A DNA stretch of 64,000 nucleotides from Pontimonas sp. (lineage in GTDB: Bacteria > Actinomycetota > Actinomycetes > Actinomycetales > Microbacteriaceae), in assembly GCA_018402295.1 (NCBI GenBank), contig JAGYJI010000004.1:1-64000 (forward strand), read 5' to 3'. Below, in pieces: positions 45,692 to 47,417 of the stretch. Each line of letters begins with the position of its first letter. Within the stretch, counting starts at the first letter, position 1. A program made the translations under genes and the position numbers. The notes below the pieces were generated by a model. That model did not search any database and was not told the origin of the DNA. It saw nothing but the letters and a program-made list of their open reading frames with translations.

Positions 45692-46773
45692 TCCAGGTAG
45701 AACAAACCGGCGCCCACAGCCGCAAAAAGTCCCGCGATAAGCCAGAACCTCACCACAATCGTGACCTCAGCCCATCCTTTGATTTCGTAATGGTGGTGCA
45801 GCGGTGAGGAATAAAAAATTCTGCGACCGCCGGTGGCTTTGAAATAGAGACGCTGGAGAATGACTGATCCGGTCAGAACGACAAACAGTCCCCCGACAAC
45901 CGGCAACAACACTTCGGTGCGGGAGAACAGGGCGAGCGCTGCAACCCCACCACCCAGGGCTAGCGAGCCCGTGTCGCCCATAAAGATCTTTGCCGGCGAG
46001 GTGTTCCACCACAGGAACCCAATCAAACTGGCCGCCACGATCGCCGCAACGGCTGTCAACTCAAGAGAGTCGCGGACGTCATAACACTTATAGAGCACGT
46101 CTTCGTCGGGGAAGGCGCGAAAACAGGACTGATTGAATTGCCAGAAGGTAATCATGACGTAGGCGACGAAAACCAAAATCGTGGCGCCACTGGCGAGACC
46201 GTCAAGCCCGTCCGTCAAATTCACGGCATTCGAGGTTCCCACGATGATGAGAGTGGCCCACACGGCAAACGCGATGACAGCGGCCCAATAGCCCCACTCC
46301 ACAAAGGACAGGACGTCCGCCCCGCGCACCACGGAGATTCCTTGGGCGGCGGGCGTTATGCCATTCTCATCAGGGAAAGAAACGGCACCCCAGGCGAACG
46401 CGACCGACACCACGAGTTGGCCGATGACTTTGCCCCGCGGCGACAACCCCAAAGACTGCTGGCGCCGAACTTTCGAGAAGTCATCGAGGAAACCAACAAT
46501 CCCCAGACCCACCATGAGGCCAACTACGAGAAGACCCGAGGGGCTTGGCATCCGACCCTCCAGGAGATGGGCGCCAAAGAAGCCAAAGAGCACCGCCAGA
46601 AGAATCACAATGCCCCCCATGGTGGGGGTGCCGCGCTTCACAAAGTGAGTTTTGGGGCCATCTTGGCGGATGAACTGACCCCATCCAATTCTCGCGAACA
46701 GGCGAATAAACAGGGGGGTGAGAAACAACGAGAAAGCGAGCGCGAGCGCGCTACCCAGCAGCAGTATTCTCAC
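45676..46773 (-). CDS. mraY: Phospho-MurNAc-pentapeptide transferase
   Basis: 'KRGTPTMGGIVIL', 'NAVNLTDGLDGLASG', 'FLWWNTSPAKIFMGDTGSLALGG', 'SSPLHHHYEIKGW'. Confidence 0.96.
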   Translation of the reverse strand: MRILLLGSALALAFSLFLTPLFIRLFARIGWGQFIRQDGPKTHFVKRGTPTMGGIVILLAVLFGFFGAHLLEGRMPSPSGLLVVGLMVGLGIVGFLDDFSKVRRQQSLGLSPRGKVIGQLVVSVAFAWGAVSFPDENGITPAAQGISVVRGADVLSFVEWGYWAAVIAFAVWATLIIVGTSNAVNLTDGLDGLASGATILVFVAYVMITFWQFNQSCFRAFPDEDVLYKCYDVRDSLELTAVAAIVAASLIGFLWWNTSPAKIFMGDTGSLALGGGVAALALFSRTEVLLPVVGGLFVVLTGSVILQRLYFKATGGRRIFYSSPLHHHYEIKGWAEVTIVVRFWLIAGLFAAVGAGLFYLEWLSR

Positions 46774-47417
46774 GCGAGGTCGTCTCTCAACTTCTCCACC
46801 AGAGCGGTAAACGACTCCTCGGTGCTCCCGAGCACCAGCAGAACATCTCCCGGCCGAATATGCGCACGAATGTCATCGTACGCGGTGGTGCTGTCCTCAC
46901 AGAACCGCGACTCTCCGTCCCACGACCCTTCCATACCCACCGACAGGAAAAGAGCTCTCGCACCTCGTCCGATCGCAAAGACCTGGGTCACATTGAGACG
47001 AACCATGAAAGCCCCAAAAGCGCTGAGGTTGTCGTAGTCGGAGGCTCCGGAGAAATCTAGAGCACCGGCCACCGCCACAACGCGACGAGAACCTCGGGCG
47101 AGCGTCGACACAGTCTTGGTGACGTCCACGGCGCGGGAAGCCTGCGTCACGTGTGAGGCATCGACAAAAACAACATCATGGGCCAGTGTCACACCGTGGG
47201 GCAGATCCTGCGCAAAGTCCTGGCCCAGGCTTGCGTCAAGAGCCTCGAGAAGTGTCATGCCTTCGGCGAGGGAACCTCGAACCATGTCCAGCGCCGCCGC
47301 CCTGGCTTCAAGACTCATCCCGGGGATACGCAGAGCCGCTTCCTGCTCCCCTACTGCCAGGTCGGCGCCGGTGGACTCCCAGTCCACCCACTCCCGAGTG
47401 ATACGAAGATCACTCAC
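46770..47417 (-). CDS. MurF-like protein with only the C-terminal part; N-terminal and ATPase domains absent
   Basis: 215 aa between murE and mraY; retains 'SGASDYDNLSAFGAFMVRLNVTQVFAIGRGARALFLSVGMEGSWDG...IRPGDVLLVLGS'; no P-loop and no DAYNANP motif (reads VDASHVTQA). Confidence 0.75.
   Translation of the reverse strand: MSDLRITREWVDWESTGADLAVGEQEAALRIPGMSLEARAAALDMVRGSLAEGMTLLEALDASLGQDFAQDLPHGVTLAHDVVFVDASHVTQASRAVDVTKTVSTLARGSRRVVAVAGALDFSGASDYDNLSAFGAFMVRLNVTQVFAIGRGARALFLSVGMEGSWDGESRFCEDSTTAYDDIRAHIRPGDVLLVLGSTEESFTALVEKLRDDLA

What the first reader, a model, noticed from the sequence alone, without database searches (positions are those of the whole stretch)
46770..47417. MurF position encodes only a 215-aa C-terminal fragment with lost catalytic motifs
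Sequence: the ORF begins with a GTG overlapping the murE stop and overlaps mraY, so there is no room for the missing N-terminal and ATPase domains. The C-terminal MurF-like region aligns by eye ('SAFGAFMVRLNVTQVFAIGRGARAL...EGSWDG...RPGDVLLVLGS'), but the DAYNANP position reads DASHVTQA. Inference: not an active UDP-MurNAc-tripeptide:D-Ala-D-Ala ligase. The frame is open over 215 codons with tight translational coupling, suggesting selection as a protein.
Basis: partly seen in the sequence, partly recalled or inferred. Interest (0 to 1): 0.85.

Follow-up and report, generated by a model that had tools for sequence, protein, structure and literature searches.

The report
Kept non-catalytic MurF tail protein
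In a group of small marine bacteria and several relatives, the cell-wall enzyme MurF has been replaced by a membrane-bound substitute, yet the tail of the old MurF, which can no longer do the chemistry, is kept by selection in its old operon position, at least five times independently, so it probably does a second, non-enzymatic job such as holding the wall-building machinery together.

Summary
The 215-aa ORF between murE and mraY is a MurF C-terminal domain without the UDP-binding domain, P-loop, DAYNAS/NP, GEMxELG or KSS motifs. The window is Pontimonas. All 18 other Pontimonas genomes and 23 genomes of seven further Microbacteriaceae genera carry an intact short MurF tail (143-338 aa) in the same place, tightly coupled to mraY. 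The 30 genomes with a membrane-anchored MurF (TM-MurF, beside Ddl) in a 300-genome family draw lack full-length MurF in 29 cases; 266 of 270 others have it. The MurE+MraY tree rejects a single origin of the tails (AU p=3e-77) and shows at least five groups. The tail's core evolves at dN/dS 0.05-0.13 in nearly all Pontimonas pairs, so this is not decay. Catalytic positions are scrambled, but an EGSWxGES loop, on the side away from the old active site by topology, is invariant. Best reading: catalysis moved to TM-MurF/Ddl and the MurF tail survives as an adaptor of the Mur-MraY assembly. The protein, its conservation and the swap are shown; the adaptor role is inferred. In Pontimonas the dcw MurD is likewise a conserved pseudo-ligase beside MurD2/MurL.

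The parts
46770..47417 (-). MurF-C stub: stand-alone, non-catalytic MurF C-terminal-domain protein, 215 aa, GTG start
   Evidence: ORF; Pfam PF02875; AlphaFold2 model pLDDT 85, pTM 0.82, best folds MurF 4cvk/4qf5
46773..47174 (-). Conserved core of the stub (residues 82-215), Rossmann-like C-terminal Mur ligase domain
   Evidence: secondary structure; core dN/dS 0.05-0.13 in nearly all close Pontimonas pairs, up to 0.27 in other genera
46908..46931 (-). Invariant EGSWDGES loop (residues 163-170), helix-to-strand loop on the side away from the former active site (topological inference)
   Evidence: 41/41 stubs that span it match EGSWxGES with varied codons
47139..47162 (-). Lost catalytic motif: NDAYNASP position reads DASHVTQA (residues 86-93)
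   Evidence: alignment
47175..47417 (-). N-terminal part of the stub (residues 1-81), remnant of the end of the MurF middle domain; variable and missing in shorter stubs
   Evidence: dN/dS mostly 0.16-0.8
47414..48847 (-). murE (full-length ligase; its 5' end is split by a frameshift, upstream part in 48717-48959)
   Evidence: TIGR01085 313.5 bits
45676..46773 (-). mraY
   Evidence: PF00953 and PF10555
44683..45691 (-). Pseudo-MurD at the murD position (no P-loop, no C-terminal domain; read in two frames in this assembly, open in 17/17 relatives checked)

Best explanation
The ORF is what remains of the operon's murF after its catalytic job moved to another enzyme. Microbacteriaceae lineages that gained a cassette of alpha/beta-hydrolase, membrane-anchored MurF (TM-MurF) and Ddl no longer need dcw MurF catalysis. 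The old gene lost its UDP-binding domain, P-loop and catalytic loops by in-frame shortening, but its C-terminal domain stayed folded, translated and under purifying selection between murE and mraY. The most likely function is that of a non-catalytic adaptor: the MurF C-domain already served as a docking piece of the Mur ligase/MraY/MurG/division assembly, using the surface around the EGSWxGES loop, and that second role is what is still selected. Shown: sequence, distribution, loss of catalytic positions, selection, repeated origin, replacement enzyme with intact MurF motifs. Inferred: translation itself, the adaptor role, its partners, and that TM-MurF does the ligation.
For: Intact short ORF in 18/18 other Pontimonas and 23/23 TM-MurF carriers of seven other genera, always between murE and mraY. 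TM-MurF in 30 of 300 family genomes, 29 of which lack full-length MurF; 266 of 270 without TM-MurF have it. 24/24 TM-MurF carriers checked outside the family lack full-length MurF, so TM-MurF looks sufficient. TM-MurF keeps GSYGKT, DDTYNxNP and PGMxELG invariant and folds like MurF from residue ~172. Stubs are polyphyletic: AU test rejects one origin, p 3e-77. Core dN/dS 0.05-0.13 in nearly all Pontimonas pairs. Catalytic positions lost while EGSWxGES is kept in 41/41 stubs that span it, with varied codons. Published MurF contacts with MraY, MurG and MreB (PMC4929429) and Mur ligase-division protein contacts in mycobacteria (PMC3605390; plate images later corrected, PMC10965061).
Against: No interaction, expression or phenotype data. 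Cassette carriers outside Microbacteriaceae have murE directly next to mraY and no stub, so the role is not general. EGSWxGES is also conserved in functional MurFs, so it marks an ancestral feature, not a new one. The stub evolves faster than mraY (mraY dN/dS 0.01-0.06).
Confidence: 0.6

Rival explanations
1. Regulatory or structural subunit of the new membrane MurF: the stub binds TM-MurF/Ddl and modulates it or links it to MraY.
For: Within Microbacteriaceae every TM-MurF carrier examined has the stub, and stubs appear with the cassette in at least five groups.
Against: TM-MurF carriers outside the family have no stub, and TM-MurF has its own C-terminal domain with intact motifs.
Confidence: 0.2
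2. Relic kept only because frame and length matter for translational coupling from murE into mraY and the essential genes downstream.
For: 4-nt overlap with mraY in nearly all genomes; in-frame shortening only.
Against: Coupling alone predicts dN/dS near 1; the core shows 0.05-0.13 in nearly all Pontimonas pairs and an invariant motif with free codon choice. Other lineages removed the gene completely.
Confidence: 0.1
3. Ligand sensor: the C-domain still binds a pathway metabolite (D-Ala-D-Ala, stem peptide or nucleotide) and regulates MurE or MraY.
For: Mur ligase C-domains contribute to amino-acid and ATP binding (general knowledge); a Rossmann-like fold is retained.
Against: The loops that bind ligands in MurF are the ones lost or variable; the invariant loop lies on the other edge by topology.
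Confidence: 0.08
4. Assembly error: collapse or frameshift hides a full-length MurF.
For: This assembly has frameshifts in neighbouring genes.
Against: The same short gene is in 18 independent genomes, including the complete type-strain chromosome; the murE-mraY gap leaves no room.
Confidence: 0.01

Closest known systems
MurF (TIGR01143; UDP-MurNAc-tripeptide:D-Ala-D-Ala ligase), dcw-encoded
   Same: Synteny murE-murF-mraY, C-terminal domain sequence and fold
   Different: No UDP-binding domain, no P-loop, catalytic loops lost; not a ligase
PAP11/MurE-like subunit of plastid RNA polymerase
   Same: A Mur ligase relative used as a peripheral structural subunit; matched by fold (8xzv_J, 8r6s_Q); described in PMC12681378
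   Different: PAP11 is a near full-length MurE in another compartment and complex; the stub is a single C-terminal domain in the cell-wall operon
MurT of MurT/GatD
   Same: Compared with TM-MurF: neither uses the usual UDP-binding N-terminal domain; MurT acts on lipid I/II, not on UDP-linked precursors (PMC6085368)
   Different: TM-MurF has about six N-terminal helices, sits beside Ddl and keeps MurF motifs; closest solved structures are MurFs
MurD2/MurL alternative D-Glu pathway (Xanthomonas, Micromonospora; PMC8788868)
   Same: Pontimonas has an adjacent MurD-type ligase and MurL homologue and no glutamate racemase
   Different: Here it coexists with a conserved pseudo-MurD at the dcw murD position

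Membership tests
MurF (stub) | UDP-binding N-terminal domain | tested here: not met
   215-aa ORF limited by the murE stop; no hit
MurF (stub) | ATP-binding P-loop and middle domain | tested here: not met
   no PF08245 hit; only the end of the middle domain remains
MurF (stub) | catalytic loops DAYN(A)NP, GEMxELG, K-S-S | tested here: not met
   ~100% in 33 functional MurFs, lost or variable in 42 stubs
MurF (stub) | Mur ligase C-terminal domain fold | tested here: met
   PF02875 at cut-off; Foldseek MurF E 6e-7, probability 1.00
MurF (stub) | operon position between murE and mraY | tested here: met
MurF activity (TM-MurF) | P-loop and MurF C-domain motifs | tested here: met
   GSYGKT, DDTYNxNP, PGMxELG invariant in 44 homologues
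MurF activity (TM-MurF) | UDP-binding N-terminal domain and TIGR01143 cut-off | tested here: not met
   all-helical N-terminus in the model; 191 of 288.6 bits
MurF activity (TM-MurF) | adds D-Ala-D-Ala to UDP-MurNAc-tripeptide | not testable with these tools
   inferred from being the only MurF-type ligase in most carriers
MurD2/MurL pathway | MurL homologue next to a MurD-type ligase, no MurI | tested here: met
   MurL homologue in 18/19 Pontimonas, 0/41 others; MurI over cut-off 0/19
MurD2/MurL pathway | MurL model NF041275 cut-off | tested here: inconclusive
   E 8e-100, 334 bits against a cut-off of 700; the model is named for Xanthomonadales

The most novel reading that the evidence does not exclude
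The order of steps in peptidoglycan synthesis has changed in these lineages: TM-MurF, membrane-embedded and without a UDP-binding domain, adds D-Ala-D-Ala to a lipid-linked tripeptide after MraY (as MurT/GatD acts on lipid I/II), and the retained MurF tail, with pseudo-MurD in Pontimonas, is a non-catalytic licensing or docking factor that keeps MraY in the Mur complex and lets it use the tripeptide.
Probability: 0.13. Interest if true: 0.92.

Novelty: new variant of a known kind. Interest (0 to 1): 0.78.

Why it matters
MurF is one of the most conserved cell-wall enzymes and a drug target. Here evolution has repeatedly separated its chemistry from something else its C-terminal domain does: the chemistry was outsourced and the tail kept. 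That makes a long-standing proposal, that Mur ligases also act as structural parts of a membrane-proximal assembly line, directly testable in organisms where the scaffold part exists alone. It also exposes a membrane-bound MurF-Ddl system across Actinomycetota that standard MurF models miss at their cut-off, so automated annotation may call MurF absent or call the tail an active MurF.

Tried and rejected
Assembly artefact: rejected (18 independent genomes, one complete). Simple decay: rejected by dN/dS and open frames. Split ligase with N-terminal and middle domains encoded elsewhere: rejected; the other MurF-like protein has its own C-domain. Nucleotide-level constraint on the EGSW motif: rejected, codons vary freely. 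Single origin of the stubs: rejected by AU test. Stub as a general requirement of TM-MurF: rejected, carriers outside the family lack it. MurD2 stereospecificity from the D182/K348 positions of E. coli MurD: looked at, not diagnostic, because a Gram-positive MurD also has Arg at the second position. PDB sequence search with the stub profile gave nothing meaningful; only the fold comparison worked. Literature searches for Pontimonas/Microbacteriaceae murF loss or a membrane MurF found nothing relevant.

Full report
What is there. The ORF at 46770-47417 (-) lies in a dcw cluster (mraZ, rsmH, ftsL, pbpB, murE, stub, mraY, murD position, ftsW, murG). It starts with GTG, overlaps the murE stop and the mraY start by 4 nt each, and encodes 215 aa. 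Pfam finds only Mur_ligase_C. The AlphaFold2 model is good (pLDDT 85, pTM 0.82): a Rossmann-like domain from residue 82, preceded by a remnant of the end of the middle domain. Its best fold matches in the PDB are MurF structures (4cvk, 4qf5; E 6e-7).

Genus and conservation. Near-identical loci are titled Pontimonas, and one genome in the set has a single contig of 1,760,810 bp, the published length of P. salivibrio CL-TW6T (genome length in the abstract of PMC6106888). None of the 18 other Pontimonas genomes, nor the window's own, has a MurF over the TIGR01143 cut-off, while all 41 other Micrococcales in the same draw do. All 18 have an intact short ORF between murE and mraY, from about 147 to 215 aa (in G006 it is split over two contigs and in G007 cut by a contig end).

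Where catalysis went. Pontimonas has a second MurF-type ligase, 517 aa in the type strain, in the order gpsA, alpha/beta-hydrolase, TM-MurF, Ddl, thiL. It matches the MurF model only from about position 64 and has an N-terminal hydrophobic all-helical region instead of the UDP-binding domain. P-loop, DDTYNxNP and PGMxELG are invariant in 44 homologues, and its fold from residue ~172 is that of MurF. In the window's own assembly it is split by frameshifts.

Spread over the family. In 300 Microbacteriaceae genomes TM-MurF occurs in 30, from eight genera. Full-length MurF occurs in 267 of the 300. So 29 of 30 carriers lack it; the exception, G151, has an extra full-length copy away from the dcw cluster. 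Of 270 non-carriers 266 have it. All 23 carriers outside Pontimonas have a truncated dcw MurF between murE and mraY, in a graded series from 338 to 143 aa, open in frame. Outside the family, 24 of 24 carriers checked lack full-length MurF, and in the dcw regions inspected there murE is followed closely by mraY without a stub. The cassette order hydrolase-TM-MurF-Ddl is conserved across these actinobacteria.

Independent origins. A maximum-likelihood tree of MurE plus MraY, the genes on either side of the stub, places stub-bearing genomes in at least five groups. G154+G260 are nested inside full-length members of genus g64, and G187 inside full-length members of g105. The AU test rejects one origin (p 3e-77) and grouping g64 with g59 (p 5e-8); grouping G187 with g101/g67 is rejected by AU (p 0.0014) but not by SH (p 0.066). 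Constrained trees were found with the fast search, so exact values are approximate.

Selection. Nei-Gojobori dN/dS of the 135-codon core is 0.05-0.13 in nearly all Pontimonas pairs and 0.13-0.27 in pairs of other genera; the N-terminal part is mostly looser (0.16-0.8); mraY is 0.01-0.06. Some dS values are saturated, so the closer pairs carry the weight. In 33 functional MurFs the catalytic positions are ~100% conserved; in 42 stubs they are lost or variable, whereas E-G-S-W-x-G-E-S plus G118, G135, R140, G150 and A153 (window numbering) remain. Codons of the motif vary freely, so the constraint is on the protein. By topology of the alternating fold the motif lies in a helix-to-strand loop, on the edge opposite the strand-to-helix loops that carried catalysis (inference).

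A second case next door. The dcw murD of Pontimonas is also a pseudo-ligase: ~330-350 aa, no P-loop, no C-terminal domain, open in 17 of 17 relatives checked (a pattern hit for a P-loop in G013 lies far downstream of the P-loop position and is not one), dN/dS 0.05-0.14. Pontimonas has a full-length MurD-type ligase next to a MurL homologue instead, and no glutamate racemase over cut-off: the MurD2/MurL route known from Xanthomonas and Micromonospora (PMC8788868). Two ligases of one operon have thus each been replaced and each kept as a non-catalytic remnant, flanking mraY.

Mechanism. Pure coupling does not explain amino-acid-level selection, and other lineages deleted the gene altogether. A subunit role for TM-MurF is possible but not general. 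Published contacts of MurF with MraY, MurG and MreB (PMC4929429) and of Mur ligases with division proteins in mycobacteria (PMC3605390, with a later figure correction PMC10965061), and the use of a MurE relative as a structural subunit of plastid RNA polymerase (PMC12681378; fold match), make an adaptor role the most economical reading. The partner is unknown.

Limits. No expression or interaction data; distribution rests on sampled genomes, several incomplete; TM-MurF activity is inferred.

Noticed in passing
window 44683-45691 (-), and the murD position of all Pontimonas loci: The dcw MurD is a conserved pseudo-ligase (no P-loop, no C-terminal domain) beside a MurD2/MurL pair elsewhere and no MurI: same pattern as the MurF tail.
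   Followed up: partly
window 43349-44618, 44683-45691, 47414-48959; L001; G000:C7:95541-96883: This assembly has frameshifts in several cell-wall genes (ftsW, murD position, murE 5' end, TM-MurF, MurL) that are open in relatives: probably consensus errors, so single frameshifts in this window should not be read as biology.
   Followed up: partly
L096 1689-5169 and L205-L235 (other actinobacterial families): Cassette alpha/beta-hydrolase, membrane-anchored MurF, Ddl recurs across Actinomycetota and stands in for MurF there; the hydrolase's role is unknown.
   Followed up: partly
G151:C1:1908347-1909621 (L143, L196): A carrier of both TM-MurF and the dcw stub has in addition a full-length MurF away from the dcw cluster, without the EGSW motif; possibly regained from elsewhere.
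   Followed up: no
G033 (0.93-Mb genome of the same family): No glutamate racemase over cut-off and no MurL homologue found; its source of D-glutamate is unclear.
   Followed up: no
G121, G144 and two more family genomes: Neither TM-MurF nor full-length MurF over the thresholds used; not examined (G121 is 78% complete, G144 99%).
   Followed up: no
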